This document shows positions 12,507 through 54,533 of a stretch of 64,000 nt of DNA, piece by piece. Position 1 is the first letter of the stretch. The number at the start of each line of letters is the position of its first letter. The DNA is from Pyropia yezoensis (Eukaryota; Rhodophyta; Bangiophyceae; Bangiales; Bangiaceae). The stretch lies in assembly GCA_009829735.1 (NCBI GenBank), contig CM020618.1:40725030-40789029 (forward strand), given 5' to 3'. The notes under the pieces were generated by a model that saw only the letters and a program-made list of their open reading frames with translations, was not told where the DNA came from and searched no databases. The position numbers were made by a program, and so were the translations under genes.

Positions 12507-14450
12507 ATGGCGACCCCGGGAGTGGAGACGGACTCTCTTGACGAGCGTATGGAGGACACCACCTACGGTGCAGCACCCGCCGGGACTTCCGGCGGGGGCT
12601 CCGCGATTGCTCCGGGGGATGGGACTCCCGCGTCACCCGGCTTTGGGTTGACGGCGGGATCTCCCCCGGAGGCGGGACAAGTTGTCCCGCGTGAGGCCTT
12701 GGGGCGGTGGTTTTACCCCGCTTGGCCTCTATATGAGGAGGGGTTGACTGTTCTTCGCTGTGGCCGACTTGGCGCAGCGATGGGTCGGGTATGGGACCGC
12801 CTACGGGAGAAGTATCCCCGTAGGGTCGGGTTCCCTGCCGGCTTCAGGACGGACCAGTTTGCCTTCCTGGACGACGAGGAGGTCGAAGACGTACAGCGGG
12901 CCAAGGCCATGGTGGACCGCGGGGGAACTATCCCGGGTCCCGGCGACTTGCCGACCTTTACTTGGGACGCGGTGGCAACTCGCCCCCCGTACCTTCACGA
13001 GGCCGATCCGCACACTCATCACTTTGATATGCGGATGGAGAAGGACTTCCGGTGAGGTCCCTACTTGGTGACCTCGGCTCAACTTGAGTTTCCTCAGCAG
13101 TCTGCTGCCAGTAAGGAGCAGTACTATCCGAAGAAGCCCGAGTGGTGGCCTCAAGTTGAGGTCCCCTACGGGTTCCCGGCGTTGCTGCCACGGTTGCTTG
13201 ACCACTTCGGCTCCGTCATGTTGACGGCTGGCCCTGATCATCTGGTGTGGGCCATGTTGGCCACCCAGTGGCTCCTCGAGGTCATGTCGACCTGGGTGTC
13301 ATGTGTTCAGCGGCGGGGGATGCTCTGGCATCTCCCCCTCCGGCTTATCCAAGGTTTGGAAAAGCTCACCCCTCAGCTAGTTGCTGAGGGGTGCTCATCA
13401 GGACAACTCACTCTACTTGAGGAGATGCTCCGCCTCCACAAGTTTATCGAGTGGGAGAGCATTGAGCACAAGTTGCGCCGCCCCACTCGTGGGCCCAAGG
13501 ACGATGGCGCACTTCGCCAGTTCGTGTGGGTCGCTCGTGAACTTCACGACGGCCGTGTGGTCCTACGAGAGGGGTTGGGCATCGGGGACTACCCGTATGC
13601 CCCGGGGGTGGATCGCCACACTGCGCCATCCCCGGACAAGCCCATAGTTATGGCTGTGCCCTCATATGATGACCATATGACTCAACCTACTGCGGGGGCC
13701 CCAAGTCGGGGTCGCAGTTACACCCGGGTACCGCCACCTCGGCGTGCCTCTCCGCTTCCTCCTGTCCCCTTCCAGCCGCACGGGAACATCCCGATTAGCG
13801 TGGCCGTTGAGTCGTCCACCCCGGTGTCCCCCAACCTGGGGCCCACCCTCCTGAAGGTATACCCCAAGTTGGTGTTACCGCCAACGCCTCTAACCTCAGA
13901 GATGATGATCACCACGTTGGTGCGCACCATTTCCTGGTTGGCCGCGTCGACCGCAACCCTCCAAAGTTCCGAGACTCCTCAACTTGAGGAGCGCGTTCGT
14001 ACTGCAGTGGCGACCGCGAGTTGCGAGTCGGTGGCGGAGTTTATGACGGCCGAGTTGGCTCGCATCGGGTCTATTATGCCCCAGCCAGCCCCACTTGGGC
14101 GTGGCAAACGTCGCGCGAGCCGGGCATACTCGCCTCCTCGCCGTCGTCGCCGATACTCGCGGCGCTCTCCCTCCGTGTCGGAAGACGAGTTGTCTTACTC
14201 CGTCTCGGAGTCCTCGACTCCGTCAGAGTCGGAGTCGGTCCGGCGTCTGCGTCGCAAACTTGCGCGCAAGACCAAGCAGAAGAGTAGCCACGGTCGGCGC
14301 CACTTGCGCGACCGTGAGGGGCGCGACGGTTCCGACTTGGAGCCGCCGCCCCCTCCGACTGGTGGGGAGCGTCATCGCCGTGGGTCTCGCCGCTCGCCTC
14401 TACGTGAGGGCGAGGGCCGTGGAGTGGGAGAGTCTAGCATGCATGCCTAG
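12507..14450 (+). pseudogene. antisense third ORF (aORF) of B unit 1, one nonsense codon
   Basis: This ORF is opposite in direction to gag-pol and lies between the pol 3' end and the 3' LTR. It is the same 648-codon frame as in unit 2, but a C-to-T change at 13053 turns CGA into TGA, leaving about 182 residues from the ATG before the stop. The frame then continues intact to 14450. Sequence after about 13740 differs clearly from unit 2, whereas the part before is nearly identical. The function is unknown; see the intact copy at 21431-23374 for the domain description. Confidence 0.85.
13367..13393. repeat. 11-bp perfect hairpin inside the B aORF
   Basis: Arms CACCCCTCAGC and GCTGAGGGGTG surround the loop TAGTT within coding sequence. 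The same hairpin is in unit 2 at 22291-22317. Confidence 0.7.
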
Positions 14451-14561
14451 TTGGCAGCTGCCTTTGTTGTGAGAGTGCAAGGGTTAGGGCTGTAGTTAAA
14501 AGCCACTCTGCGTACCACTTCGACTTGAAGCACTCTCTTGGCACTGTTGCTCGGCCTTCCC

Positions 14562-21430: not shown

Positions 21431-23374
21431 ATGGCGACCCCGGGAGTGGAGACGGACTCTCTTGACGAGCGTATGGAGGACACCACCTACGGTGCAGCAC
21501 CCGCCGGGACTTCCGGCGGGGGCTCCGCGATTGCTCCGGGGGATGGGACTCCCGCGTCACCCGGCTTTGGGTTGACGGCGGGATCTCCCCCGGAGGCGGG
21601 ACAAGTTGTCCCGCGTGAGGCCTTGGGGCGGTGGTTTTACCCCGCTTGGCCTCTATATGAGGAGGGGTTGACTGTTCTTCGCTGTGGCCGACTTGGCGCA
21701 GCGATGGGTCGGGTATGGGACCGCCTACGGGAGAAGTATCCCCGTAGGGTCGGGTTCCCTGCCGGCTTCAGGACGGACCAGTTTGCCTTCCTGGACGACG
21801 AGGAGGTCGAAGACGTACAGCGGGCCAAGGCCATGGTGGACCGCGGGGGAACTATCCCGGGTCCCGGCGACTTGCCGACCTTTACTTGGGACGCGGTGGC
21901 AACTCGCCCCCCGTACCTTCACGAGGCCGATCCGCACACTCATCACTTTGATATGCGGATGGAGAAGGACTTCCGGCGAGGTCCCTACTTGGTGACCTCG
22001 GCTCAACTTGAGTTTCCTCAGCAGTCTGCTGCCAGTAAGGAGCAGTACTATCCGAAGAAGCCCGAGTGGTGGCCTCAAGTTGAGGTCCCCTACGGGTTCC
22101 CGGCGTTGCTGCCACGGTTGCTTGACCACTTCGGCTCCGTCATGTTGACGGCTGGCCCTGACCACCTGGTGTGGGCCATGTTGGCCACCCAGTGGCTCCT
22201 CGAGGTCATGTCGACCTGGGTGTCTTGTGTTCAGCGGCGGGGGATGCTCTGGCATCTCCCCCTCCGGCTTATCCAAGGTTTGGAAAAGCTCACCCCTCAG
22301 CTAGTTGCTGAGGGGTGCTCATCAGGACAACTCACTCTACTTGAGGAGATGCTCCGCCTCCACAAGTTTATCGAGTGGGAGAGCATTGAGCACAAGTTGC
22401 GCCGCCCCACTCGTGGGCCCAAGGACGATGGCGCACTTCGCCAGTTCGTGTGGGTCGCTCGTGAACTTCACGACGGCCGTGTGGTCCTACGAGAGGGGTT
22501 GGGCATCGGGGACTACCCGTATGCCCCGGGGGTGGATCGCCACACTGCGCCATCCCCGGACAAGCCCATAGTTATGGCTGTGCCCTCATATGATGACCAT
22601 ATGACTCAACCTACTGCGGGGGCCCCAAGTCGGGGTCGCAGTTACACCCGGGTACCGCCACCTCGGCGGGCCCCTCCGCTTCCTCCTGTTCCTTTCCAGC
22701 CTCACGGGAACATCCCGATCAGCGTGGCCGTGGAGTCATCCACACCGGTGTCTCCCAACTTGGGGGCCACCCTCCTGACGGTATACCCCAAGTTGGTGCT
22801 ACCGCCCACGCCTCTAACCTCAGAGATGATGATCACCACGTTGGTGCGCACCATTTCCTGGTTGGCCGCGTCGACCGCAACCCTCCAAAGTTCCGAGACT
22901 CCTCAACTTGAGGAGCGCGTTCGTACTGCAGTGGCGACCGCGAGTTGCGAGTCGGTGGCGGAGTTTATGACGGCCGAGTTGGCTCGCATTGGGGCTATTA
23001 TGCCCCAGCCAACCCCACTTGGGCGTGGCAAGCGTCGTGCGAGCCGGGCATACTCGCCTCCTCGCCGTCGTCGCCGTCACTCGCGGCGCTCTCCCTCCGT
23101 GTCGGAAGACGAGTTGTCTTACTCCGTCTCGGAGTCCTCTACCCAATCGGAGACGGAGTCTGTCCAGCGTCTGCGTCGCAAACTTGCGCGCAAGACCAGG
23201 CAGAAGAGTAGCCACGGTCGGCGCCACTTGCGCGACCGTGAGGGGCGCGACGGTTCCGACTTGGAGCCGCCGCCCCTTCCAACGAGTGGAGACCGTTATC
23301 GGCGTGGGTCTCGCCGCTCGCCTCCACGTGAGGGCGAGGGCCGTGGAGTGGGAGAGTCTAGCATGCGTGCCTAG
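21431..23374 (+). CDS. intact antisense third ORF (aORF) of B unit 2, unknown function
   Basis: The protein is 647 aa and would come from a transcript opposite to gag-pol. I chose the first ATG of the frame (21431); the frame upstream offers only TTG. The N-terminal 70 residues are acidic and Gly/Pro-rich. About 80-190 is a domain ending in an H-T-H-H...LVTSAQLEFP stretch. About 205-370 is the best conserved part (EWWPQVEVPYGFPALLP, FGSVM, RRGMLWHLP, VVLREGLG..PYAPGV). The C-terminus is rich in Arg-Ser and Ser-Glu, like an RNA- or DNA-binding tail. Both conserved parts align with the aORF proteins of C and, more weakly, D. I recognise no known family, and no RT, integrase or envelope motif is visible. 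Plant Tat/Ogre-type gypsy elements are known to carry antisense ORFs in this position; homology with those is untested. Confidence 0.85.
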   Translation: MATPGVETDSLDERMEDTTYGAAPAGTSGGGSAIAPGDGTPASPGFGLTAGSPPEAGQVVPREALGRWFYPAWPLYEEGLTVLRCGRLGAAMGRVWDRLREKYPRRVGFPAGFRTDQFAFLDDEEVEDVQRAKAMVDRGGTIPGPGDLPTFTWDAVATRPPYLHEADPHTHHFDMRMEKDFRRGPYLVTSAQLEFPQQSAASKEQYYPKKPEWWPQVEVPYGFPALLPRLLDHFGSVMLTAGPDHLVWAMLATQWLLEVMSTWVSCVQRRGMLWHLPLRLIQGLEKLTPQLVAEGCSSGQLTLLEEMLRLHKFIEWESIEHKLRRPTRGPKDDGALRQFVWVARELHDGRVVLREGLGIGDYPYAPGVDRHTAPSPDKPIVMAVPSYDDHMTQPTAGAPSRGRSYTRVPPPRRAPPLPPVPFQPHGNIPISVAVESSTPVSPNLGATLLTVYPKLVLPPTPLTSEMMITTLVRTISWLAASTATLQSSETPQLEERVRTAVATASCESVAEFMTAELARIGAIMPQPTPLGRGKRRASRAYSPPRRRRRHSRRSPSVSEDELSYSVSESSTQSETESVQRLRRKLARKTRQKSSHGRRHLRDREGRDGSDLEPPPLPTSGDRYRRGSRRSPPREGEGRGVGESSMRA

Positions 23375-23485: not shown

Positions 23486-26248
23486 TCACGTTGAGGGAGG
23501 GCTGTTAGGGTCTATCTCGTTCCGGGCACAGTACGCCCGGACCTTCTCAGCAGGAAGGTCCTCCACATACTCCCACGTATCATCCTTGGCTTTGTAGCCA
23601 AACCAACGCACCCTCAACATGAGGCGGTCAGTATCCTCATCCCAGCCGTGGTCGATGAACTTGTCGAACACGTACTCCTGCGGGCCCTGTTTGGCTGCAG
23701 GCAGCGAGGGCAGGCGCCACGTTTTCAAAGCACGCGCCCAAGCTGGGTCGCCTGCAGGCGGTGGTGCAACTTTGACCACGTCCTGTCCGTTCACTGTGCG
23801 GACCCCATCGTCACTTTCGATGGTGAAGCGCCGCCCATCAGTACGAAGGACCTGGTACGGCCCCTTCGTCTGGAACACCAACTTACCCCCAGTTGGGGTG
23901 TGTGAGTGGACCAATACCCAGTCACCCTGCTCGGGGACATGCTTGGCGTTGCGCACCTTTTTGTCAAAGGTACGCTTGTAGCGCTTTTGTGCTTTGTCCA
24001 TCTCAGCCCTGACTTTAGGGATGAGGTTTTCAAGCCTAGCAGCGAACTCCGCCTTACTCTCAGTAGGAGTGGGCGTACTGCCACCATCCTCCCTAGTTGG
24101 GAGCGGCCGCCGCACGGCAATAGACCGCACGCGACGGGGGGTCACAAAAGCGAGGGGTACTTCCCCGGTAGATGAGTGAACCTTCGAATTGTAGGCAGTG
24201 GTCAGAATAGAAATGTATTGGTCCCACGTCTTCACGTGCTCACTCACATAATGGCGCAGCTGCCTAACAATAGTTTTGTTGAAGCGCTCCACCTGCCCAT
24301 TAGTTTGTGGGTGGTAGGGGGTGGCATAGTTTGCCTTAACCCCCAACATATCCAGCACTCCTTGAAACAGTACAGACGCAAATTGCGGTCCATTGTCCGA
24401 TAGTGTACTATCCGGAATGCCATACGCGGCAACCCAGTGATCTAGGAAGGCTGACACGACCGACATGGCCGTGATCTCTGCCAGTGGGATCGCTCGCGTA
24501 AGTTTCGTGAAGCGGTCACAGATGACCAGGAGGTACTGGTTGCCCTCCTCGGTCACTGGCAGTGGCCCAAGGATGTCCATCGCCAACGCGGCGAAGGGCT
24601 CCTTGGCCGGGAACAATAGCATAGCCGTAGTAGGCCGCCGTTCCATCAGACGGTTCTGTGCACAACTTGTGCAGGCAGCCACCCAACTGTAGATGTCCAC
24701 CACCATGGACGGCCAGTAGTACCTGGTCCTCAGGGTCTGGTATAGTTTACTAGACCCCAGGTGTCCACCCGTGGGAGCGTTATGCTCCCTCTCAAGGATA
24801 CTGTCCTTGAGGGATGCGGGGACGACAAGTTGTTCGGTCCCCTGGAATACCCCCCTCCTCATGAGGAGGCCATCGTCTCCCAGGAAGAACCGCGTCTCCG
24901 CCACTGTATCCAGGGTATCCCTCTGCGACTTGCAGAAGGGATCCTCGGCCTGGGCCTTCACTACTTCGTCCAGGGACAGGGGCAAGTACTTCTTGTTCCC
25001 TGGCGCCTCGGGATTCAACGCCTGACCCGAGCGCGTGACTACCCCCACGATGGGGATGTCCTCATCGACTGGGGTGGTGTCCAGTCCCTCGGTAGGTACC
25101 CGAGAGAGGCCGTCGGCAAGGGCATGTTGCCTGCCAGGTCGGTACTCAATATCAAAGTTGAAGGGTGCAAGTCGCACCCTCCACCGGTTGAGACGAGTGT
25201 TCGTACAGTCCGTCTTGAAGATGAACTGCAACGCGCGGTGGTCACAGCGGATGAGGAACTTCTCACCCTCTAGGTAGTGACGAAGTGACGTCACCGCCCA
25301 TACCACTGCGAGTCCTTCCAACTCGGTGACTCCGTAGTTCTTCTCGGCCGAGTTTAGCCCCTTGCTGAAGTATCCCACCGGCAAGTACTCCTTGTCCGGC
25401 TGTTGCTGAAGCAACACACAACCAAGTTGGTCGTAGCTAGCGTCCACATCCAGGATGTAGTGGCCTCCCAACCTGGGAATAGCCAGGATAGGGGGCTTCA
25501 GCAGAAGGTCCCGAAGAGTCTCAAAGGATTCCTGCTCCACCCGACTTGGGGGAGGCAGGTTCTTCGGTAGCGTTGAGCTCACTAACTCATTCAACGGCTT
25601 CGCCACTTTGGCGAAGCCCTTAGTGAAACGTCGGTACACGTTACACATCCCGAGGAAGCTCCTCATCTGGGTCTGGGTCCGGGGGTACTGAGCCTTGCGG
25701 ATGGCCCTCAAGTTTTTCTCGTTGACACTGAGACGCCCCGGACGGACAACATGTCCCAAGTACTCCACCTCTTGAGTGAAGAGGTGGCACTTACTCGCCT
25801 TCAGTGACACTCCGGCGTCAGCAAGTAGCTTGAACACCTGGCCAAGATGGCCAATGTGTTCCTCCGGACTTCGGGAGAACACAATGATATCGTCTAGGTA
25901 CACGAGACAGATCTGCCACCGTACTCCGGCCAGAATCATGTCCATAGCGCGCTGGAAAGTTGCCGGCGCGTTACACAGGCCAAACGGTAGACGCTTGCAC
26001 TGGTAGGTACCACAATGACAGGTAAAGGTAGTTTTATGCCTGTCCTCCGGGGCAATGGGAATTTGCCAGTACCCCGCGTTACAGTCCAGGGTAGAGAACA
26101 CGTTTGCCTCCCCCAGAGAATCCAGACAGTCGTCCATCCTAGGTAGGGGATAACTGTCCTTCACCGTGCTCTCGTTGAGCTTACGGTAGTCGATACAGAA
26201 CCGGGGAGTCCCATCACTTTGGGGACGATAACCACCGGACTCGCCCAC
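23486..26248 (-). CDS. Pol of B unit 2, RT to chromodomain part
   Basis: The domain order is as in unit 1, 920 codons with all catalytic residues of RT, RNase H and integrase and the C-terminal chromodomain. It differs from unit 1 at a small number of residues, for example the integrase finger reads CTSCAQ here against CTCCAQ. It is separated from the protease frame by the same one-base loss near 26216-26221. Confidence 0.92.
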   Translation of the reverse strand: MGESGGYRPQSDGTPRFCIDYRKLNESTVKDSYPLPRMDDCLDSLGEANVFSTLDCNAGYWQIPIAPEDRHKTTFTCHCGTYQCKRLPFGLCNAPATFQRAMDMILAGVRWQICLVYLDDIIVFSRSPEEHIGHLGQVFKLLADAGVSLKASKCHLFTQEVEYLGHVVRPGRLSVNEKNLRAIRKAQYPRTQTQMRSFLGMCNVYRRFTKGFAKVAKPLNELVSSTLPKNLPPPSRVEQESFETLRDLLLKPPILAIPRLGGHYILDVDASYDQLGCVLLQQQPDKEYLPVGYFSKGLNSAEKNYGVTELEGLAVVWAVTSLRHYLEGEKFLIRCDHRALQFIFKTDCTNTRLNRWRVRLAPFNFDIEYRPGRQHALADGLSRVPTEGLDTTPVDEDIPIVGVVTRSGQALNPEAPGNKKYLPLSLDEVVKAQAEDPFCKSQRDTLDTVAETRFFLGDDGLLMRRGVFQGTEQLVVPASLKDSILEREHNAPTGGHLGSSKLYQTLRTRYYWPSMVVDIYSWVAACTSCAQNRLMERRPTTAMLLFPAKEPFAALAMDILGPLPVTEEGNQYLLVICDRFTKLTRAIPLAEITAMSVVSAFLDHWVAAYGIPDSTLSDNGPQFASVLFQGVLDMLGVKANYATPYHPQTNGQVERFNKTIVRQLRHYVSEHVKTWDQYISILTTAYNSKVHSSTGEVPLAFVTPRRVRSIAVRRPLPTREDGGSTPTPTESKAEFAARLENLIPKVRAEMDKAQKRYKRTFDKKVRNAKHVPEQGDWVLVHSHTPTGGKLVFQTKGPYQVLRTDGRRFTIESDDGVRTVNGQDVVKVAPPPAGDPAWARALKTWRLPSLPAAKQGPQEYVFDKFIDHGWDEDTDRLMLRVRWFGYKAKDDTWEYVEDLPAEKVRAYCARNEIDPNSPPST

Positions 26249-27468: not shown

Positions 27469-27477
27469 TCGTTTCCC
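27432..27477 (-). promoter_or_regulatory. -1 frameshift signal of B unit 2
   Basis: Heptamer GGGAAAC (complement of 27471-27477), 6-nt spacer and bulged 11-bp hairpin are identical to unit 1. Confidence 0.8.
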
Positions 27478-41659: not shown

Positions 41660-42021
41660 TGTAGCACAATAGGGAACCGCTGCACGTCCACTGTCAGGAA
41701 ACACTCACCAAGGGGGATCGGCACCAACGTCACCGGGAGGCTAAGGTTGCTGTCCTGGGAGCGCAAGCCACGGGACCAAGATGGGAGCCCAAATGGGAGG
41801 GGTTTGTCGTTCTAGGATGGCCGGCGGTGGTTTCGCCGCCGGCCCCCTCGTTATAAACACTCGGAGACACTACTAACTACCCTCCACCCCGAGATGCAGG
41901 TCCCTCTGGTCATACGTAACTTATAGATACCGTGACCAATACGGACTCCCAAATTGAAAGTTGAGGGTTTGAAGCAGTCCCCCTATATTAGGGTCACAAT
42001 ACGGTCATCGATATTGCTACG
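41660..42021 (-). repeat. 3' LTR of element D
   Basis: It is 362 bp, beginning TGTAGCA and ending TGCTACG (TGCTACA in the partner LTR). It carries a TATAAA on the plus strand at 41852-41857, pointing toward the aORF, and a decayed TATA-like motif on the minus strand around 41920-41929. Confidence 0.93.
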
Positions 42022-42605
42022 TATCCCCCCCTTAGATTCGGCCCCTCCTCGGGTCGAGTTGCATTCGGGTTTCCGAACGCAAGTGGGTCGCGCGACCGTT
42101 TACCAGTCGGGAGGGGCTTTGGGCCCTGTCGCGGCAGACACCCCTTTTCATGGTTGTCTGAGGGGGGTGCCCCCCTTTGTGTGGTACACACACGATCCGT
42201 TTTCCGGACCGTTGAATTCCCGATGCGGGTTTTCGTGTCACGACCCCCCTCTCCGGGGGGTGGTGTAAGCGGATCCGCCACCAGGCGTCTGGTGGTAGCG
42301 GGGCCCCTCTCGTGTGGACGAGTGAGTGGGGGCGGGGGCTGCCCGCGTTGCGCGGGGGCGGTTGTGGGGTGAACCCCCTTGATTACCCCGTGTGGGGGCG
42401 TGGCCCTGACCCAGGTGCCTGGGTGGAGCGACCTCGTAGCTCGGTTGGTGCGGGTCGTCCCGTGCTGCCGTATCGCTCGTGCTGAGCTGTGTGGTTATAA
42501 GCGCGGGTGCCCGCGCTTCCCTGGCTCGTCCCTGTGCATCCCCTGTACCGGGTCGAGCCGGCTGCGGCTTTTTGGCAGGGGAACCCCTGCTACCCCGGAT
42601 TCACC
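42022..42605. other. polypurine tract and aORF leader of element D
   Basis: The minus-strand purine run AAGGGGGGGA (complement of 42024-42033) next to the LTR is the likely plus-strand primer. The rest contains several short inverted repeats, including CACCAG/CTGGTG, and no ORF of note. It would be the leader of the antisense transcript. Confidence 0.55.
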
Positions 42606-44969
42606 ATGTCGGACCCCCAGGTGCCCGGGGGCACGGACGACCTCCTGCTTGAGGAGGAGGAGGTGATGCAGGACGACGTTCCCGTCGCTGCCACCGCTGC
42701 CGAGTGCTTCCTTGCGAGCTCGTCGGACGACTAGGATCGGGTGACCGTCCGCGTGTCGGCGGCGGGCCCGCCGGGCGGACTGTCGTCCGGTTGCAGCGGC
42801 ACGACGGCTCCGTCGGGGGGCGGTCAACCGCGTGTGGCGGCTCCTGCACTTACTCCTCCGGCGGCCCGGATGGCTCCTGTCGCCGGCGCCGGCGTGGTGC
42901 TACCTCAAGAAGGTGCAGTCGCTGCTTCTGACGGTCGTGGCGGCACCCCGGCCGGGACGGCGGGTCAAGATGGTGCGGGTACCCGCCCGGCTGGTGGTCC
43001 GTCCGCGGGGGCGGTTGAAGGGTCTACCCCATCCGTCCCCGTTGTGCCGCCGTCGGGCCGGGGTGCTGACGGCGCCCTTCTCGCGGTGCCGCGGGCGACT
43101 GTCGGTCAAGACGTTTCTTCCCCGATGGCGGTGGACTCCGGGAGTTACTCCGGGAGGGCGCCCGCCCATCTTCTTCCTGCTCGCCTCCGTGCGCCTGCGG
43201 CGCCGGCCCATCTGCAGGTGGGGCTTCCCCCGGCGCCGCCGATTCTTCCTGGGCCCGCCCGGGTTGCCCCGCTGGGTGGCGGCGCCGCCTTGGTGGCGGG
43301 CCACCCGTGTATGTCGGTGTCCGACTTGGTGGCTCGTGTTCGAGGCCTCACCGTGCAGGAGCCCATGGACTCTGCTGGCCGGATGCGGGTGGACTTCCAC
43401 CCGCCGAGATACCGTGGAGGCTCCTCCCGGCGCATCAAGTTGGACCCGAGTTGGGAGCGGGAGTTGGCGCGGCTGGTCAACCAGCCGAATGCGGTCCGTG
43501 TGGAGCATCATTGGATACTGAGTCAGCCGGACGACCGGCATGCCCAGCTCTGGCGCACCCGGGTCGTGCGGGGTGAGGTCTTCCTCAACCCCGCGTTCGG
43601 GGTATGCGACTTGGTTGCTCCCGCGTTGCCGCGGGACGTTGACTACTCGGCTAGTGCACGGGGGGTTGCGGCCGCTGTGACCCCTGTTGCGTTCGTGCAC
43701 AACGTGCCCGATACCGGCCGGTATCCCGGGTTTGAGTACTTCCCGGGGGTATCCCCGTATCTCACGTTGACGGCGCCCTTCCCGCCCATGGCGGGGCTGA
43801 AGTCGGCGTCGAGCTGGCGACGCAACCATGGTGTCATGGCGGATGCGTTCCGCTCCGATATAACGTGTGCGTTGCAGACCGGTAACGGTCGCACGCCGGT
43901 GTACACTCCAGTGCGCCCGCCTCTATGGCAGGAGGGGCGGGAACCCGCCCCTGCTTTCCGGTTTGGCACCGGCTCCTGTCTCCGATACTTCGGGAGAGTG
44001 TTGGCCTCCCGGCCGGTCCACCCGTTGCAAGGGACCTTCACCCTCGAGGTCACCCTCGGGCAGGCTTCCTCCTTCCTGCTGTCCGTCCGTCGGCAGGGGC
44101 GGCTGTTTCATCTTCCGTCGGGTGTCCGTCGGCACATTGGGGAGCTGGGCGTTGACCTTATTGCCGCCAAGACGGGGTTGGCCCGTGAGTTTGAGGTTCT
44201 CTTGGCCGTTCACGATGCCGTGAACTGGGCGGAGGCGTTGAGCCTACCCGCGTACCGGGATCCGCAGGCTGGGGCTGCCCCCTTGCCTCATCACTCGTTG
44301 CGCATCCGGCGCACTCAGCAGGGTGAGCCCAGTTACCGCGGGTGGGCGTCCACCGAGGCTGTTCCTGACCTGGGTATTCCCATGGTTATCCATGACCCGC
44401 TTCAGGTCATAGCTCGGTGGTTCGGTAACCCGATACCGGTGGGGGTTGGCCGTCGTCCCCGAGAGTGGGACTCTGCGGGGGGGGGGCGTGAGGTGTCCCG
44501 TCGTCGGGCGGAGTCCCGCCGGGTTTACGGTGGAGCCCCTTCCGTGGGGTCCTACCATGCCTCGTATCGGGCGGCACCGGCTCCTGTGGTAGCCGTATCG
44601 GCTCCTGTGGCTCCTCTAGCTGCGCCAGTGTCACCTTCCGTCCCTGTCATGCCTGACGGGGGTCCCCGTCTATGGCATGAGGGCGTTGACGCCCTCATTT
44701 CCCGCGAGCTGCGGAAGGGTCTCTCCATTAGCTGGGGGGATATCACCCCAGGTGCTGCGCTGGTTGGTACCGCGCGCTGCTTCGGTGGGGTGCTGGACCG
44801 CCTCCAGCTAGCTCTGGAGGAAGTGGAGGCTGGTTGCAGCACTCTCGTGGAGCTATGCACTGAGGTAACTCAGGCGATTGACCGTCGCGAGATTGCCGAC
44901 CGGTGGAGCATGGAGGTGTACGCGTCTGCGCGTGAGTGGCCTCCTTCGGGCAGCGGGGGCACCCCCTGA
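42606..44969 (+). pseudogene. antisense third ORF (aORF) of element D, one in-frame stop
   Basis: It runs opposite to gag-pol, between the pol end and the 3' LTR, as in B and C. I place the start at the ATG in CACCATG at 42606; a TAG at 42732-42734 follows an acidic first segment, and the frame continues without break to 44969 (788 codons). The downstream frame alone begins at a GTG. Recognisable shared parts are HAQLWRTRVVRGEVFLNPAFG, then YFGRVL, RRQGRLFHLPSGVRRHIGEL and HDAVNWAEAL, which line up in order with B and C. The N-terminus is Pro/Ala/Gly-rich. The function is unknown. Confidence 0.75.
44677..44698. repeat. 10-bp perfect hairpin in the D aORF
   Basis: ATGAGGGCGT and ACGCCCTCAT enclose TG. 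A second one, GACGGGG/CCCCGTC, lies just upstream at 44655-44670. Confidence 0.6.
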
Positions 44970-45418
44970 TGATTGCTGTAGCTATGAGGGAGAGGGACTC
45001 GGTGACCCTTACGGTAGCCGGGTAGTAGTGAGTATTAACTCATCCCCCGCTGGGGTATTTGCATGGTTTTGATGGCTGCCTTCGGGGAGTACTCCGTCTG
45101 CCTTAGCAGTGGCTTTCCTTGGTCTTTCTTGCACCCCCAACCCATCCTGGTGGGGTAATACTCGTGAAGGTCAACCTTCCTCGATCCGTCACTCGCCCCA
45201 TGGCTGAAGGTTTATCTTGGTGTAGGCCCCAGGTTACTTTGAAATTATCGGAGTTATTCATCTCCTTCAAGTAAAACTTGTAAAATTCAGCTGCCCACCT
45301 AGTATGCCTAAGTCCGCCCCGATGTAGTGAGCCTCAGTCTTGCCGAATCCATGTGACACCCTACTTAGTAGGTATAAGCCTCACTTCCCTACAGCCGAAG
45401 TCGGTGTCGGTTGGGTTG
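44970..45418. other. spacer between convergent aORF and pol of element D
   Basis: This is about 450 bp of A/T-richer DNA with no ORF or domain. The 3' ends of both element transcripts would fall here. Confidence 0.5.
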
Positions 45419-45840
45419 TTACAGCAGGCGACGTCGCCTCATGTAAGGCATGAGAAGTTGGCAGAAAATATTCGCCGCCTGTTCCCAGGTGGGTGAGTCG
45501 TATCCGACCCACATCACTTTGACGTACCAGGGTCCTGGTAGGTCTGGGTCGGTGTGTCCGACCACGCTCTCTACTTGGTATGAAATCCCATCCGGCCCCA
45601 CCGGGTCATCTGACCGGTGGGTAGTAAGCGCTTCATGTAGCCACCCAGCCGGTACCAGTTGAGGCTGTTCCGGCTTCGGAGTAGGTGTCAAATCATAGAG
45701 ATTGATGCGTTGTATCTCCGTATCGGAGTGCAGGATGACAGAGTGATCATCTCTGTGTAGGATCTGGTACGGTCCCTTGACCGGTTGCATAAGCTTGTTC
45801 CCTCGGAACTTCTGGTGTCTGATATAGACCCAGTCACCTG
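45419..45840 (-). pseudogene. C-terminal integrase tail and chromodomain of D pol
   Basis: This is the part of D pol separated from the rest by element C. It begins with the GDWVYIRH motif and KGPYQIL and carries a chromodomain (YQVESVVGHT...WYVKVMWVGYDSPTWEQ). It ends at the stop complementary to 45419-45421. Joining at the ACCTG duplication restores continuity with the segment at 56081 and beyond, so the insertion was clean. Confidence 0.88.
45836..45840. repeat. target site duplication ACCTG, left side of element C
   Basis: It matches 56081-56085. The interrupted pol sequence reads through perfectly when one copy and the element are removed. Confidence 0.95.
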
Positions 45841-46379
45841 TGAGGGAGATTGGGCCGGAATTCGGTACCAATACTTTGGAGATTCGGGTCAAGTGGACCT
45901 GACCGGAAGTCGAAATTCACCCGACCCACGATGGTGAAACTTCTGACTTCTGGACGGAAATTCGACTAGGACTTCCGACATACTAGAGCAGGGTAATGCT
46001 GCTGGTATTTGTTTCTTGGGATTTTTGCACGGGAGCCAGACGGATTTCTACGCTTTGAGTGCTTTGCATGTGGAGTGATATGATTGGTTTGTTTGAGGGT
46101 TCATTTTCTGAGTGTTTTGAGGGGTTGCGTGAGCGTGTGAGGAGGGTTGATAAGGAGGGACAGCAAGGCGGGGAGGGCCCACCTTGGCTGGCCAAGCAAA
46201 AAAACACCGTCTGGCTCCGACACATCTTGTTCGTGCCTTGGTGAGCTGACCCGTTCACCACACGCAAGTTCCGTGTTCGGCTCTGTGGAGGTGCTTGCTA
46301 CCGGTGTCCCAAGTTGGGATATCGGCAATACTCCTCTTCCTTCCCTGACTCGGGGTTGGTGGTTGGGAGTCCTGCTACA
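45841..46379 (+). repeat. 5' LTR of element C
   Basis: It is 539 bp, beginning TGAGGGAG (TGTGGGAG in the partner) and ending CTGCTACA. Its start is fixed by the ACCTG duplication. Confidence 0.95.
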
Positions 46380-46381
46380 GT

Positions 46382-46398
46382 TGGTGGATCAGCGGGGG
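46382..46398 (+). other. primer binding site of element C
   Basis: TGGTGGATCAGCGGGGG differs from the A/B/D site at two positions. It still fits a tRNA 3' end, so it may use a related or different tRNA. Confidence 0.82.
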
Positions 46399-46696
46399 AG
46401 AGGATATCGACTTTGGTACCTCCCTTGACCGGAGATGGGACCAAGTTGGCCCCTCTCCCCCTCCGGCACCGAGACTTCCGGTGACACGATCGACTCGCCT
46501 ACGTTCCGAGCGTTCTCTGGGTGACGAGGTTGGTCACCGTGAGTCTTGGTGGGAGACCCGGAGTTTCGGGAAACCTCACCGCCTTCCTTGAGGTACGTGG
46601 AGGGGTGGAACGTGCTCTAGGAACTCCCTAGCTGACGATCCCCGACTCTGGACACCGTTTGGTCGTTTTGGTTGACTCGACGTGACTCTTGTGGAG

Positions 46697-48460
46697 ATGG
46701 CTGGTGAGGGAGACCCCCCCATTGCGCCGAGTGTACCTGGGGAGGGGGAGCGTAGTCCTCCCCCGACGGGCGGAGTACCACCCAGGCCGGGCAGTGCGGA
46801 TGTGGTGGGTCCAGAGGTTGGACCCCGACGGCGGTCGGCCAGGCTCCTTCCCAGGCCGTCCCCGGAAGAGACGGGCGGAGTTCGCCCTTCTCCGGTGGGA
46901 GCGCCGAGCCAGCGTCAGGCTCCGGCATCCTCTTCGGGGAGTGACGACACTCACTTCGGCATGGGACCGCCGACCGGCAGAGGTGACGGGACGGGGAGTT
47001 CCGTACCCCGGGTTGGTGGGTCCGCGCCACGACTGGTGTCGGAAGGACCGGGTGGGAGCTCGAGTCAAGCTCCACCTGGCTCATCCGGTATCGTGGATGA
47101 CTCGGTGATGACTGCCATCGCACAAGTCGTGCGAGAGGAGGAGGGGAAGGCGTTGAAGGGGAACACCCCTCCGCCTGAGCAGGCCTCGAGGCGTCAGAAG
47201 CGACGGGAGATTCGACGTACTCTCCGTCGTGAGGTGGACTCAGAGTCTGAGTCCTCTGCAAGTGGCAAGTCGGGTGAAGAGGATCTTACCCGACGTGGTC
47301 GTGTGACTCACACGGACCGTCTTGGGACTAGAGTCGTCCCAGGAAAGATAGTGGTGAATAATCCATTGTTCAAGGATGTCTTCGACTGTGAGACATATGG
47401 GTTGGTCAACAAGTCGTTGACCTACTCGAATAGTCAGGCCCGTACCCTGGGCCGGCGCAAGAAACACGTTGCGCAATCCTTCGGGGTCCGTTCAGAATGG
47501 GACGGGACACCACCCCTGAAAGTCTTCCAGTTTTTGCGGAAGTTCGCAAAAGCCTGCGATGACAATGATGTCTCTGAAGCTGAAGCGTTTTTCATGCTTC
47601 AGGACTTCACCAAGGAGCCACTCCGCTCCAAGGTGATGAACGTCATGCCAAGTCGGCATGGTGGGAACCCGGGTGAGGTGACCTCCTACCTGGAGTTGGT
47701 TAATTGGATCCTTCGTCTTCACGCAGACGAGGCTTCCTTGGCTGCGCAGGTTGAAGAGTTCAACCGCGCCACCCAGAGTAAGGGTGAAGAGGAACGGGAG
47801 TTCGCTGAACGACTCCGTCAGCTGAACGTCCTCTGTGGATTCCTATATCCCCAAGATGTCATTAAGGGACGCTTTGTGGAGGGTGTCCACCGAGCAGCTC
47901 GAGCGACTGTGCGAGAGCGTATTACTCCGACCATGACTCTGGCGGAGTTGGCACGCATCGCCCAGACTAAGGGTGATGAGTACCGCTGGCTCGTGTCTGA
48001 GCAGCGGAAGGAACGAGAGAAAGAAGCTAAGGGAGTGGAAGCAAGTCGCTTCCGCAGAACTGAAAGGGTGCCTTCCTACACGCGAACGTACCCTGCAGTA
48101 CCATCGTCCTCAACTCGAGAGACGGAAGGTATGGTGGCCGCTATCCCTGATAATTCACAGGGAAAAGCGGGGCCATCGGCGTCAATGAGTGATCGGCCGT
48201 GTTGGCAGTGTTCCAAGTCGGGACACTGGGCAGCCCAATGCCCCACTCTGGACGTTCGACTGAGAGCCCTGTTGGCTCTTATTGGGAAGCTCGGTATTCC
48301 GAGGACTGATTCGGATACCCGGCCGCGTACCACACGGGTGACGGCCATGACTCAACCTCAGTCAGAGAATGAGTCCACGCTTGAGAAGGGGGAAACCTCT
48401 TCCCCCAGCTCAAGTGGCAAGGATACTCCATCATCCGAGTCGGATGAGGGAAACGCCTAG
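46697..48460 (+). CDS. Gag of element C
   Basis: The protein is 587 aa and uninterrupted. The frame opens at a GTG (46682) but the first ATG is 46697 (GAGATGG). The N-terminal 200 residues are Pro/Gly/Ser-rich and disordered. The capsid region aligns with B (FDCETYGLVNKS, ACDDNDVSEAEAFF, SYLELVNWILRL, LCGFLYPQ). A CCHC knuckle CWQCSKSGHWAAQC lies near residue 502, followed by an acidic Ser-rich tail. At least four hairpins with five-base loops lie inside this gene, three of them with loop AAGTC. Confidence 0.94.
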   Translation: MAGEGDPPIAPSVPGEGERSPPPTGGVPPRPGSADVVGPEVGPRRRSARLLPRPSPEETGGVRPSPVGAPSQRQAPASSSGSDDTHFGMGPPTGRGDGTGSSVPRVGGSAPRLVSEGPGGSSSQAPPGSSGIVDDSVMTAIAQVVREEEGKALKGNTPPPEQASRRQKRREIRRTLRREVDSESESSASGKSGEEDLTRRGRVTHTDRLGTRVVPGKIVVNNPLFKDVFDCETYGLVNKSLTYSNSQARTLGRRKKHVAQSFGVRSEWDGTPPLKVFQFLRKFAKACDDNDVSEAEAFFMLQDFTKEPLRSKVMNVMPSRHGGNPGEVTSYLELVNWILRLHADEASLAAQVEEFNRATQSKGEEEREFAERLRQLNVLCGFLYPQDVIKGRFVEGVHRAARATVRERITPTMTLAELARIAQTKGDEYRWLVSEQRKEREKEAKGVEASRFRRTERVPSYTRTYPAVPSSSTRETEGMVAAIPDNSQGKAGPSASMSDRPCWQCSKSGHWAAQCPTLDVRLRALLALIGKLGIPRTDSDTRPRTTRVTAMTQPQSENESTLEKGETSSPSSSGKDTPSSESDEGNA

Positions 48461-48496
48461 CCGCTGGGACTAAGACTGACCCAAGGGCTCCAGCGG
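48431..48496 (+). promoter_or_regulatory. -1 frameshift signal of element C
   Basis: GGGAAAC at 48448-48454 is read G GGA AAC in gag. A 6-nt spacer GCCTAG containing the gag stop follows, then stem arms CCGCTGG (48461-48467) and CCAGCGG (48490-48496). A second hairpin, TCATCC/GGATGA with loop GAGTC, ends on the base just before the heptamer (48431-48447). Confidence 0.8.
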
Positions 48497-51400
48497 TAAT
48501 GAAGCGGGTTGCTTCACACTCACCGACCCATGGGAGAGTGAAGGTCCTGACTCGACCTCGAGGGGTGAGGCCTAGAGACAAGGTCCCTCCTCAGAAGCAC
48601 GACCCGAGTCGGATTGTGTCAGTGCTGGTAGGGAGTAACTACCAGGTCGCAGCTCGACTCTGGCTGCAGGATGGATATGAGTTTACCTCTCGTGTCATAG
48701 TCGACACAGGCTCTGCTGCCTCTCTCATTAGGCAAGACTTATTGCCAGAGGGGGTGGATGTGAGTCCCGCCGGCTCACCCGAGTGGCGTATGTTTGATGT
48801 CAATGGGGGACTCCTCCCCATTGTCGGGTCTATTGCATTGACTGTTTGCATTGGGTTCTACCAGACGCAGGTGAACTTTGGAGTAGTCTCCAATATGTCA
48901 GTTCCCGTACTCCTGGGAACTGACTATCTGGACCTCCATGTCCCGGCCGTCTGTGGACCGGAAGGGGTAATCCGAATGCGTAATGGAGAGACTGTCCCCA
49001 TATTGCGTAAAGGGAGGACTGTTTCCCCTACGACTCATCAACCTAGGGAAAACTCTCCCAAGGGTGGAGGCTCTACGACCCATGTACGAGTATGTAAGGG
49101 TACGGTAGTCCCGCCCCGATCAAGGACCTTTGTGCGAGTACGCACACGGTTTCGAGGGAATGGACTCGTTTCCCCCGTGGACCGAGTCTATCATACTCAC
49201 CAAGTGCAAGTTGCATGGGGCCCGATGACTTGTGGGGATGACCAAACTTGGTGGGTGGAGGTCCTCAACACGTCGGAGGAACCTCGACGACTCCCCGGAG
49301 GCATGAAGATTGCGTCGATCTCTACCTCTGAGGGGAATGTCGTTGCTGTGACTCAACAGCAATGGAAGGATATTGGAACGGCAGGCTCTGCCGACCAATC
49401 GAGTTCATCGACGGCTAAGTCGCCGACGGTACATCTGCAGAACATCCCGGAGTGTTTACATGGACGACTGGATGAGTTAATCCAGAAGCATCACAAGTTG
49501 TGGAATGGTGACCTTGGGCTCATCAAGGCCACCGAACACAGAATCGTGTTGAAGCCAGGGGCCAGGCTAGTTCGCCTGAGTCCCTACCGTATGGGACCAG
49601 ACTCACGGGAACTCACCCGAGAGCAGGTCCAACGGATGCAAGACATGGGTGTCATTGAGCCTTGCTCAAGTGAGTGGGCCAGTCCCATAGTCTTGGTGCC
49701 CAAGTCAGACGGCACGATGCGGTTCTGCATCGATTATCGTAAGCTAAACGAGCGGACGGTAAGGGATAGTTACCCCTTACCCCGTATGGACGATTGCCTC
49801 GAGTCACTCGGTGAGGCACAGTACTTTTCCACGTTGGACTGCAACGCGGGGTACTGGCAGATACCCATCCGCAAGGAGGACAGACACTTGACCACCTTCA
49901 CGTGTCACTGTGGAGTTCATCAGTGTACACGGCTCCCTTTCGGGCTTTGCAATTCACCTGCGACTTTCCAGCGTGCTATTGACTTGATACTTGCCGGAGT
50001 CAAGTGGCAGATCGCCCTGGTGTATCTGGACGATATCATTGTGTTCTCCGGGACTGCCGAAGAACACCTGTCCCACTTGGACAGAGTGTTTACCCTGTTG
50101 GGTGATGCAGGAGTAACACTCAAACCTACGAAGTGTCACCTCTTTAGTAATGAGGTGGAGTACCTCGGCCATATAGTCCGGCCAGGTCGCATTCTGGTCA
50201 ATGAGAAGAACCTCATGGCCATCCGTCGGGCGAATTTCCCCCAGACGCAGACACAGCTCAGGAGCTTCCTGGGTATGTGTAACGTATACAGACGCTTTGT
50301 GGCGAACTATGCCAAAGTGTCTGCACCGTTGAACCACTTGGTAAGTTCCAAGATGCCCAAGCGCTTGGATGCTCCCAAACCCCCGGAGCAAGAAGCGTTT
50401 GATAGGTTGCGAGAACTCCTCTGCAACCCACCGGTGTTAGCGATCCCCAGACCGGGGGCTCACTACATTGTTGATGTGGACGCAAGTCACGACCAACTCG
50501 GTTGTTGCTTACTCCAACAACAGCCCTCGGGGGAGTATTTACCCGTTGGCTATTTTAGCAAAGGACTCTCACCGGCCCAGAAGAACTTTTCTGTGACGGA
50601 GGTAGAGGGCCTTGGCGTAGTATGGGCAGTCTCCATGCTACGGCCATACATCGAATGAAGGAAGTTCCTCATTCGATGTGACCACAAGGGTCTGAAGTGG
50701 ATACTCACCACTACAGCCTGTACGAATAACCGACTCAATCGATGGCGACTCTGCCTCGCTGAGTTCGATTATAACGTTGAGTATCGGCCAGGCCCGAAGC
50801 ATGTGGTTGCAGACGCGTTGTCTCGCATACCGACGGATGGGAAAGACTCTTCCCCCATCCCTGAGGAACTCCCTCATGTGGCAGTGACCACTCGCTCCGG
50901 AACTGTCCTCGACCCGAGGATGCCTGGCATGGCCAAGCTATTACCCGTGTCTCTGGATGAGTTTGTCCTGGCACAGGAGAGCGACAAACTTTGTCGACGA
51001 CTCAGGAAGGAGCTCGACCAGGCTCAACCGACTCGGTTCTTCCTGAATGACAACGGCATACTCTGCCGTAAGGGATATACCCAGGGGGACAAGCAAGTCG
51101 TCGTCCCCAAGGAGTTACGCAAGAGTATCCTCCAACGGGAGCACTCCTCACCGTTGGGTGGACACCCAGGGTCTACGAGGATGTATCAGACCCTACGCAA
51201 GAAGTACTATTGGCCATCACTCGTGGCTGATGTGTACGGGTATGTAGCCGCATGCGCGACTTGCGCAAAGAATAGACTCATGGAGTCCCGGCAGACTGCT
51301 TCCATGAGACTCTTTCCTGCAACAGAGCCGTTTGCAGCGATAGCAGTGGACTTTCTCGGTCCACTACCACGAACACCAGAGGGATATGAGTACCTTCTGG

Positions 51401-52389
51401 TGATGTGTGATCGCTTTACTAAGCTCACACGGGTATCACCACTCAAGGATATCACAGCCGTGGACGTTCTGAGTGAGTTACTCGACGTCTGGGTTGCCAG
51501 TTATGGCATCCCCGACTCTATCCTTTCGGATAACGGACCACAGTTTGCGTCCGTCCTGTATCAGGGAGTCATGAAGATGTTGGGGGTGCAGACGAATTTC
51601 GCAACCCCTTACCACCCCCAGACTAATGGGCAGGTGGATCGATTCAACAGGACTCTAGTGCGCCAGTTGCGTCACTTTGTCCTTGACTATGTAGTCACAT
51701 GGGCTCGTTATGCGTCACTACTCGTGACAGCGTACAACTCCCAGGTACACAGTAGTACGGGAGAGGCACCGTTTGCCTTCGTCTGCCCCCGACGACTTCC
51801 GTCAGTAGCTGTGGAGCGTCTCACCCAGACAGAGGGTGAGACTTCGACTCAAACACCGAGTCAGGCGAAAGCCTCCCTACTCCAGAGACTGGAGGAGATG
51901 ATACCCCTTGTCCGGGCTACTATGGAGAAGGCCCAAGCTCGTTACAAGAGGTACTTCGATGTCCGAGTCAGACATCGTCGCGATCCGCTTCGAGTTGGAG
52001 ATTAGATTTATGTCAACTCCCACGACAATAAGGGAGGGAAATTGGTCTTCAAAACTCTGGGACCATATCACATCCTTAAGACGGATGGACGGCGGTTAAC
52101 CATCGAGAGTGATGATGGTATCCGGACGATAAATGGGAACCACGCGACTCGCGCACCCGAACCCCCAGAGGGAGATCCCGCTTGGGAAAGGGCCTTGCAA
52201 GCATGGAAAGTCCCATCCTTGCCGACCTCCTCCAATAAACCGTTGGAGGCGGTGTTCGACAAGTTTGTCGGACACGGATACGATGAGTCGGGGCGACTCA
52301 TGCTCCGAGTCAGGTGGTTCGGGTATGGACCAACTTCCGAGACATGGGAGTTTGTAGAGGACCTACCAGTAGAGAAGGTCCGTAGATAG
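48455..52389 (+). pseudogene. Pol of element C, with in-frame stops
   Basis: It is in the -1 frame to gag, open from the slippery site onward. Protease DTGSA is near residue 69 counted from the ATG at 48499, RT YLDD is near 509, then RNase H, an integrase finger and the core (VDFLGPLP, SDNGPQF, GQVDRFN with D where E is usual in GQVERFN; the next residues are normal). A TGA at 50656-50658 interrupts RNase H where B has Gly, and a TAG at 52003-52005 replaces the Trp of GDWV. The chromodomain (LMLRVRWFGYGPTSETWEF) is still in frame, ending at a TAG at 52387-52389 that cuts the tail short relative to B. One continuous frame otherwise. Confidence 0.9.
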
Positions 52390-52616
52390 TGCCAGGCTGC
52401 GGGCATATCTATACGCCGACGTGGCACTCGTACGTCGGGGGATGAAGTCCCTGCTCCAAGTCAGAGCAGAGCGGCAAGCCAACCATGAGTACAAACGCAT
52501 ACCATGGTTCTTCAACGATTCTCTACTTACAAAGCCGACTATGGCACAATACAAAACGAGAAGAACACACACCACTCTTCTCGCCAAGAAAAGAACAAGT
52601 CGTTCGACCGCTGACT
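52390..52616. other. spacer between convergent pol and aORF of element C
   Basis: About 230 bp separate the convergent frames, with no independent gene visible. Part of it still resembles the decayed extreme C-terminus of pol. Confidence 0.5.
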
Positions 52617-54533
52617 CTAGCGTTCCATATGCCCACCCCCACCACTATAGGGACCGGCCGACCACGAACCCCCAGGGTCGTAGGCCGGTAGCGGAGGGGC
52701 GTAACCCACTCGGGAGGGCCCCGGAGTGGAAGCACTGGGAGGGGCCCGCCGACTCGCGGACCCATCCCCGTCGTAAGAAAGATGTCCGGAGGTACTCCCT
52801 CCGTGACGCGGAAGCTGCTGCTGAGTCGACAGCAGCCGTTGGACAAACTCGTGTCCAACCGCGAGGCGAGTGACCTCAGCTGCCAATGACTGTCGCGCCG
52901 TGGCTGAGTCGCCCGACGCGAGGACGTGACTGACACGCCGGGTGACCCAAGCCAACGTGTCAAGGGAGGCCACGAGTGAGGCCTCCACCGTGGCGTCATA
53001 CATGATGGCTCCCAAGTTGGGAAGCATCTCGCCGACGCCACGCGCAATCGGCATCGGGACCGGAGTTCGGACCCGTAGCGAGCCCAACTCCACGTCGGGG
53101 AAGGGTTCGAGGAACTGGAATGGTGGAGCCTGAGTCGGCTCCACACCCCCCGAGGTCGGAGTCGCGACCCGCGGGGAAGACGTCGGCACAGCTCGCCCGC
53201 GGCTTCGAGGGGCTCCTCGATGAGCACCACGACAAGTCGTCGCCGATGACGTCGCCCACCCAGAGCCAGGGGGCGACGTAGAGGGAGTAACCCCCTCCGC
53301 GTAGGGAAGGGAAGGGTCCCCCAACCCCTCACGCAGGAGCAGCTGCCCCTGCACCAGAGTATGGGTGACATGGACGAACTCCCGGGGTGGCTCACTCTCC
53401 AACCCCGGCTCTGAACGCTTGTTGCGGCGGAGGAAGGGGTCCAGCTGCGCCCAATCGAGTCGATTGTGCAGGGTGACCATACCCTTGAGGAGGAACGGAG
53501 CCAGGTCCCCCGCGCCCAAGGCTAACCAGTGGAAGCCAAGGGTTTCCATACCCTCCACCAGAGCCGGTGGGAGGTGCCACAGGTAACCCCGATGGACTAC
53601 ATCGGAGTACCAGTCCCGAGCCACCACGACCACCCAGTGCGTGGCGAGGTAGGCGAAGACCCGGTTGCCCTCCGAGCTGGAGCGTAGCACGGAGCCAAAG
53701 TAGGCAACGAGGAGGGGGATCCGAGCCGGAAACCCACAAGGTACCTCCACTGTCTCCCACCACCCTGGGAGAAGAGGGTACTGGTGCTCACGCTCCTCCA
53801 GAGGTACGTGGGTGAACTCCACCCGCGACCCGTGGATGAGGAAGCCCGAGGAGCCCCGGAGTCGGAACTCCTCTCGCACCACACCGTGTTGGGCGTGGGC
53901 GTCCTCTCCGCCCAGGTAGGGACGGGGAAGGGCACACCACTCGGTAGACACCACCGCGTGGGTGTCGTCGATCTCCACGTCGCCCGACCCCATGGCGAGG
54001 GAGGTTGACAACGCCTGGACTTCAGGCGCGTCCGCCAGGCAGAGTAGCGCTGGTAGGTCGCAGACCACCCCATCAGGTAGAGTCACCTGGTTGGGATACC
54101 GACGAGTCCGGCGGTACCATACGTCGGTCCGCCGTGGCTCGGTGATGATCAAGTAGACATCCTTGAGCTTGCAGTCGGGAAGCTCCCCGACTGACTTGGG
54201 AGGCGCCCAGGCTCGGGGCCCCATAGGAGGACGGGGTCGCAGCGGGAGTAGCAGCCGCGACTCAGGAAGGCGGGGGATGGGAGTCACATCCCCTTCCGCC
54301 ACCGGGTTGGAAGACCCATCCCCCGGTGGGACCACAGCCGAGGGGGCAGTAGGAGGTGATGGAGCGGGGACGGCTGAGGCGGCCGCCTCCGACCCTCGCC
54401 CGGGACGAGTCGTCTCCATGGCCGACCCCCGGCTGAGAGACTCCTCAGTCCCGAGGGCCTCCTCTCCCGCCCGTCGCTTGTCCGATAGAGACGTCGGGGA
54501 CGGGGACAAAGGCCGACTCGGCTCACCCGCCAT
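52617..54533 (-). CDS. antisense third ORF (aORF) of element C, unknown function
   Basis: The protein is 638 aa and intact, on the strand opposite to gag-pol. The start ATG at 54533 lies in AAGATGG. A disordered N-terminus is followed by a region near 120-230 ending HAQHGVVREEFRLRGSSGF, then the conserved block from about 255 (GWWETVEVPCGFPARIP, YFGSVL, HRGYLWHLP, LLLREGLG..LPYAEGV), and a Pro/Gly/Ser-rich tail. Many of these positions match the B aORF, so the two proteins are homologous. That this frame stays open in a copy whose pol has three stops may be chance or may reflect selection. No known domain is recognised. Confidence 0.85.
   Translation of the reverse strand: MAGEPSRPLSPSPTSLSDKRRAGEEALGTEESLSRGSAMETTRPGRGSEAAASAVPAPSPPTAPSAVVPPGDGSSNPVAEGDVTPIPRLPESRLLLPLRPRPPMGPRAWAPPKSVGELPDCKLKDVYLIITEPRRTDVWYRRTRRYPNQVTLPDGVVCDLPALLCLADAPEVQALSTSLAMGSGDVEIDDTHAVVSTEWCALPRPYLGGEDAHAQHGVVREEFRLRGSSGFLIHGSRVEFTHVPLEEREHQYPLLPGWWETVEVPCGFPARIPLLVAYFGSVLRSSSEGNRVFAYLATHWVVVVARDWYSDVVHRGYLWHLPPALVEGMETLGFHWLALGAGDLAPFLLKGMVTLHNRLDWAQLDPFLRRNKRSEPGLESEPPREFVHVTHTLVQGQLLLREGLGDPSLPYAEGVTPSTSPPGSGWATSSATTCRGAHRGAPRSRGRAVPTSSPRVATPTSGGVEPTQAPPFQFLEPFPDVELGSLRVRTPVPMPIARGVGEMLPNLGAIMYDATVEASLVASLDTLAWVTRRVSHVLASGDSATARQSLAAEVTRLAVGHEFVQRLLSTQQQLPRHGGSTSGHLSYDGDGSASRRAPPSASTPGPSRVGYAPPLPAYDPGGSWSAGPYSGGGGHMER

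What the first reader, a model, noticed from the sequence alone, without database searches (positions are those of the whole stretch)
12507..54533. A homologous antisense third ORF in three gypsy families
Families B (21431-23374, and 12507-14450 with a stop), C (54533-52617) and D (42606-44969 with a stop) each carry a 640-790 codon ORF between pol and the 3' LTR, on the strand opposite to gag-pol. I could align two blocks in the same order: an H-rich block (B HTHHFDMRMEKDFRRG, C HAQHGVVREEFRLRG, D HAQLWRTRVVRGEVFL) and a later block (YFGSVL/HFGSVM/YFGRVL, then R-G-x-L-x-HLP, then a W-containing helix). B and C are clearly homologous; D is weaker. Antisense ORFs are known from plant Tat/Ogre-type gypsy elements, but I recognise no family for this protein. 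A conserved, inverted accessory gene in chromodomain gypsy elements of this organism may be undescribed.
Basis: partly seen in the sequence, partly recalled or inferred. Interest (0 to 1): 0.88.

Follow-up and report, generated by a model that had tools for sequence, protein, structure and literature searches.

The report
Backward extra gene in seaweed retrotransposons
Three related jumping-gene families in a red seaweed genome each carry an extra, backward-facing gene for the same previously unnamed protein, and mutation patterns in two of the families show that evolution is preserving it; similar backward genes with unrelated proteins are known in land-plant elements.

Summary
The window is from Pyropia yezoensis: its three long contigs match the published scaffold sizes. 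Families B, C and D are gypsy elements with 5-bp target duplications, C nested in D. Each has a long ORF between pol and the 3' LTR on the opposite strand, longer than any open stretch in 1,000 shuffles. B and C proteins are homologous (E 5e-45). Relatives occur in Pyropia vietnamensis. No credible domain or fold match was found. Best reading: a selected, element-encoded accessory protein made from an antisense transcript, probably nuclear and regulatory, working like plant Grande/Retand antisense ORFs but with an apparently unrelated protein. Transcription and function were not testable. New variant of a known kind.

The parts
21431..23374 (+). B2 antisense ORF, 647 codons from ATG; central conserved region plus arginine/serine-rich basic tail
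   Evidence: ATG supported by P0019, which starts at the same methionine
12507..14450 (+). B1 antisense ORF, second copy, interrupted by one stop codon
52617..54533 (-). C antisense ORF, 638 codons
   Evidence: start methionine aligned with the first residue of P0006, P0010 and P0011
42606..44969 (+). D antisense ORF, interrupted by one stop after codon 42; 744 codons open downstream; acidic N-terminus
   Evidence: N-terminus resembles an internal stretch of P0012 and the start of P0018
11698..30016 (-). B array: LTR-internal-LTR-internal-LTR (LTRs 11698-12168, 20622-21092, 29546-30016, identical), one outer 5-bp duplication CCCTC
23486..29516 (-). B2 gag-pol (zinc knuckle, RT, RNase H, integrase, weak chromodomain); reading frame broken within pol
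45841..56080 (+). C element: LTRs 45841-46379 and 55542-56080, duplication ACCTG, nested in D
46676..52005 (+). C gag and pol open frames; chromodomain-like segment follows
41661..62608 (-). D element split by C: LTRs 41661-42020 and 62249-62608 (92% alike)
54637..54815 (.). 1.9 copies of a 95-bp tandem repeat just upstream of the C antisense ORF

Best explanation
The antisense ORF is a genuine third gene of these gypsy elements: one protein family with a conserved central region (~240 residues, predicted mostly helical at low confidence) flanked by low-complexity arms. SHOWN: position and orientation, homology across three families, codon-level purifying selection in B and C, relatives in a second Pyropia species. 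INFERRED: it cannot be read from the genomic (sense) RNA, so it needs its own promoter, most likely at or just inside the 3' LTR, which lies 338 bp (B), 585 bp (D) or about 1 kb (C) from the start codon. The protein would then act in trans, most likely in the nucleus, regulating transcription, silencing or export of element RNA, as proposed for plant Grande/Retand antisense ORFs. The tail-to-tail layout with pol would let the host make double-stranded RNA as a side effect.
For: Anatomy. Homology; in B-C the antisense frame scores 159 bits, two frames of the gag-pol strand 71 and 33 bits. Selection: B1-B2 28 synonymous, 16 nonsynonymous, 1 stop, pN/pS 0.20; the same pair gives 0.10 for RT-integrase and 0.40 for the protease part, while gag has only 4 differences, all nonsynonymous. 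Random placement expects 12.8±3.0 synonymous, 0 of 2,000 reach 28. C against L057, a copy chosen by DNA rank and not by protein: 24, 20, 0; 3 of 2,000. P. vietnamensis relatives: 44-52% identity for C and 32-51% for D. D family: 34 of 40 scored places (window copy included, of 1,030 candidates) show no net length change over the matched stretch although the other 39 are 89-94% identical to the window; C: 39 of 40, of 129 (my count from the coordinates). No transmembrane-like stretch: highest 19-residue hydropathy 1.54 in five proteins. B tail has 11 K/R in 20 residues.
Against: No transcript or protein was seen. The strongly basic tail is only in B among the three, so nuclear location is not shown for C or D. 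The structure models are of low confidence and matched nothing. The C-terminal helical segments of B/C and D are not detectably related (prob 3.3, E 0.013). The two window B copies differ mainly in one block (about 13,050-18,470), so their changes reflect a few lineages rather than many independent events. One gag-pol-strand frame that shares wobble positions also shows excess synonymous change (23 and 21; 0 and 8 of 2,000), though every gag-pol-strand frame of B and C holds at least 17 stops. No selection test was possible for D.
Confidence: 0.55

Rival explanations
1. The antisense transcript itself is the functional product (double-stranded RNA or interference with sense transcription), and the ORF is a by-product.
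For: Tail-to-tail layout with pol, 111 bp apart in B; non-coding antisense transcripts of retroelements are known (PMC7264820, parts 1-2 of 3 read).
Against: Excess synonymous change in the antisense frame, homology at protein level across three families, relatives predicted as proteins in a second species.
Confidence: 0.12
2. The protein is an anti-silencing factor that removes or blocks host repression of the element, in the manner of VANC of VANDAL transposons (recalled, not searched).
For: Independent transcription unit implied by the layout; faster divergence than pol (29% identity B-C against 61-75% for pol), as expected of a protein in conflict with a host.
Against: No domain or fold match, no test of binding or methylation; fast divergence also fits weak constraint.
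Confidence: 0.2
3. The protein is a structural or RNA-export factor (Rev- or CERV-like), needed for packaging or export of genomic RNA.
For: An LTR retrotransposon with an extra protein needed for RNA export is known: CERV of Cer1 (PMC10309623, title and start of abstract seen in the listing).
Against: CERV and Rev are made from the sense strand (recalled); no nucleic-acid-binding domain was found here.
Confidence: 0.15
4. It is a host gene or another transposon captured once by each family, or a chance ORF in GC-rich DNA.
For: GC content 60% makes long ORFs commoner.
Confidence: 0.04

Closest known systems
Antisense additional ORFs of plant gypsy elements (Grande gene23, RIRE2, Retand; aORF-3R)
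   Same: ORF between pol and 3' LTR, opposite to gag-pol, present across related families; function unknown, nuclear location reported for Grande gene23 (PMC7264820, parts 1-2 of 3 read).
   Different: No sequence relation detected by Pfam scan: at E<=1 only a sub-threshold DUF641 in 1 of 7 proteins; the plant proteins themselves were not compared. Retand elements are non-chromovirus (PMC11963269, passages), whereas the present ones end pol with a chromodomain-like segment.
TRP28 (PF04195) proteins of Retand elements
   Same: Antisense, pol-3' LTR location, proposed regulatory role (PMC11963269, passages).
   Different: PF04195 matched by 0 of 7 proteins scanned; [quoted passage not shown]
Boty of Botrytis cinerea
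   Same: Antisense ORF between pol and 3' LTR outside plants (PMC7264820).
   Different: Its sequence was not compared here.
HTLV-1 HBZ
   Same: Antisense gene of a retroelement with an antisense promoter in the 3' LTR (PMC11963269 passages; PMC7264820 part 2).
   Different: Retrovirus; no sequence comparison made.

Membership tests
Plant-type antisense aORF elements (aORF-3R) | ORF between pol and 3' LTR, antisense to gag-pol | tested here: met
   in B, C and D
Plant-type antisense aORF elements (aORF-3R) | Present in most copies of the family | tested here: inconclusive
   68 of 68 scored B places have no stop and 90 of 108 places matched by P0011 have none in the matched part (my count), but only best-scoring candidates are scored (of 3671 and 2817)
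Plant-type antisense aORF elements (aORF-3R) | Own antisense transcript and promoter | not testable with these tools
   No RNA data; no TATA-like word upstream in B or C, two in D
Retand / TRP28 | PF04195 domain in the antisense ORF | tested here: not met
   0 of 7 proteins at E<=1 by hmmscan with its usual filters
Retroviral env-like third ORF | Sense orientation | tested here: not met
Retroviral env-like third ORF | Transmembrane segment | tested here: not met
   Highest 19-residue Kyte-Doolittle mean 1.54 among five proteins; the usual cut-off of 1.6 is recalled
Chromovirus gypsy | Chromodomain after integrase | tested here: inconclusive
   B: PF00385 19.9 bits, below the cut-off of 25.1; similar segments read by eye in C and D

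The most novel reading that the evidence does not exclude
Red algal chromodomain gypsy elements invented, independently of plants and before the split of the B/C and D lineages, an antisense accessory gene with a new fold that counters host silencing in trans, so that antisense accessory genes are a recurrent solution of long-lived retroelements.
Probability: 0.15. Interest if true: 0.78.

Novelty: new variant of a known kind. Interest (0 to 1): 0.56.

Why it matters
Antisense third genes of LTR retrotransposons are described mostly from plants and their function is not established (PMC7264820). An apparently unrelated but similarly placed gene under selection in red algae points to a shared need, such as regulation or escape from silencing, and gives a second, compact system with many near-identical copies in a 107-Mb genome in which to test it. 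It would also help annotation: the P. vietnamensis relatives are named only 'hypothetical protein'.

Tried and rejected

The 40 fetched B copies gave pN/pS 0.085 among 41 sequences (0.13 with B1 added; 0.17 and 0.16 for RT-integrase) and 40 of 40 open frames, but they had been ranked by protein score, which hides nonsynonymous changes; I do not use these numbers as evidence. An unbiased, RT-anchored sample could not be fetched.

Literature: the listings of seven answered searches showed no title or abstract start on antisense ORFs in red algal retrotransposons; I did not open most of the listed papers, the listing was 20 of 77, and the library holds open-licence papers only. Seen: PMC7264820 parts 1-2 of 3; PMC11963269, PMC5408684, PMC8220671 and PMC7423979 passages only; PMC10309623 title and start of abstract.
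Full report
What the window is. The genome search placed the window at G000:C1:40725030-40789029 in a 107.5-Mb genome of 11 contigs. The three long contigs are 43.6, 34.3 and 29.4 Mb, which are the sizes published for the three scaffolds of Pyropia yezoensis (PMC7423979, passages). Protein relatives named by their source are all from Pyropia vietnamensis. The host is therefore a red alga; 48% of its genome is predicted to be repeats, mainly LTR retrotransposons (PMC7423979, passages).

Anatomy. B is a tandem array on the minus strand, with three identical LTRs of about 471 bp and two internal regions, bounded by a single CCCTC duplication. C is on the plus strand, with LTRs 45841-46379 and 55542-56080 and an ACCTG duplication. 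It is inserted inside D, which is on the minus strand, with LTRs 41661-42020 and 62249-62608 and a CGGGG duplication (the duplications were read by eye, shifting the LTR ends by one base where needed). Pfam finds gag zinc knuckles in B and C (D's gag was not scanned), RT and RNase H in all three, integrase domains in B and D, and a sub-cut-off chromodomain in B; the second pol piece of C was not scanned but aligns with B's pol at 61%. Chromodomain-like segments close pol in C and D by eye. In each element the extra ORF lies between pol and the 3' LTR, head towards the LTR and tail towards pol, on the opposite strand.

Is it more than chance? In 1,000 dinucleotide shuffles of each region the longest open stretch in any frame was 488 (B), 513 (C) and 660 (D) codons, against 724, 665 and 744 observed. 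Only the antisense frame is open; the other five hold 5-27 stops. The single stops in B1 and D fit ordinary decay of copies (inference).

Homology. B-C is beyond doubt. For D, single-sequence comparisons are weak (C-D E 2e-4; B-D E 2e-6; C-D absent at E<=0.05), and one of eight pairs (P0006-P0003) did not beat its shuffles. The profile comparison settles it: B/C core (6 sequences) against D core (3 sequences) scores 48.1, E 2.2e-6, while 150 column-shuffled versions of the same profile reach 25.9 at most (mean 14.7, SD 3.0) and the reversed profile 8.8. In register, C's RRTDVWYRRTRRYPNQVTLPDGVVCDL matches D's DDRHAQLWRTRVVRGEVFLNPAFGVCDL; C's HAQHGVVREEFR matches D's RRNHGVMADAFR; then YFGSVL/YFGRVL, RGYLWHLP/QGRLFHLP and HNRLDW/HDAVNW. 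The C-terminal helical segments are not demonstrably related.

Selection. The two window copies of B are a pair that no protein score picked: in the antisense ORF they differ at 45 sites: 28 synonymous, 16 nonsynonymous and one stop, pN/pS 0.20. In the same pair RT-integrase gives 48:16, 0.10; the protease part 19:22, 0.40; gag only 4 changes, all nonsynonymous. Placing the same base changes of the antisense ORF at random on the same sequence gives 12.8±3.0 synonymous, and none of 2,000 trials reached 28. A second C copy, L057, taken by DNA rank, is open to its final stop and differs by 24 synonymous and 20 nonsynonymous changes; 3 of 2,000 trials reach that. In both pairs the gag-pol-strand frame that shares third positions also looks enriched (0 and 8 of 2,000), as expected from shared wobble sites, but each gag-pol-strand frame of B and C holds at least 17 stops. 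Caveat: the B1-B2 differences are concentrated at about 13,050-18,470 while LTRs and most of gag are nearly identical, so one copy is a mosaic of two sublineages; the selection acted on those lineages. D-family copies could not be read; their 40 scored places (the window copy and 39 others at 89-94% identity, of 1,030 candidates) show no net length change in 34 (my count).

Distribution. Three protein searches of 5.8 billion proteins (7,991, 7,983 and 7,994 candidates scored) found 7, 7 and 1 proteins. Some P. vietnamensis models lack internal stretches that others have and may be misannotated. In the home genome the P. vietnamensis protein P0011 scores at 108 places, 90 without a stop in the matched part; nine of these match only residues 1-265 at 48-49% identity with open frames of 392-612 codons, which suggests at least one more family (my counts). 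Pol identities are B-C 75/61%, B-A 54%, B-D 46%, so if the gene was inherited with pol, family A should have had it; an assembly gap hides that part of A.

How it most likely works. Shown: a conserved protein-coding gene of the element, antisense. [quoted passage not shown] Inferred: a trans-acting, non-membrane protein with a helical core (AlphaFold block means of pLDDT 70-90 only at residues 331-390 and 411-440 of C) and low-complexity arms, basic and RS-like in B and acidic at the N-terminus of D. The likeliest job is nuclear regulation of the element, including possibly anti-silencing; RNA export or packaging comes next. I put the existence of a selected protein gene at about 0.93 and the nuclear regulatory reading at about 0.55.

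Comparison with the known. [quoted passage not shown] PMC11963269, passages). The red algal gene works like these as far as layout goes, but it shows no TRP28 domain and the elements look like chromodomain gypsy rather than the non-chromovirus Retand lineage. Hence: new variant of a known kind, with an apparently new protein family.

Noticed in passing
1-6880: A 500-base run of N at 2560-3059 is flanked by a stretch (1-2559) that is 100% identical to 4322-6880, which looks like an assembly duplication beside a gap in family A.
   Followed up: partly
11698-30016: B is a tandem LTR-internal-LTR-internal-LTR array with one outer 5-bp duplication and identical LTRs, yet its two internal regions differ by 158 bases concentrated in one block, so it is a mosaic of sublineages.
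   Followed up: partly
32786-34939: A long ORF with sub-threshold matches to a helix-loop-helix domain (E 0.033) and GAF domains (E 6e-4).
   Followed up: no
9165-10001: A long G+C-rich tandem repeat array reported with periods of 6, 18, 29, 47 and 65 bases.
   Followed up: no
54637-54815: 1.9 copies of a 95-bp repeat directly upstream of the C antisense ORF, where its promoter would be expected.
   Followed up: no
G000:C2:23925056-23925835 and eight similar places: A probable further family carrying this protein, 48-49% identical to P0011 over residues 1-265 only, with open frames of 392-612 codons.
   Followed up: no
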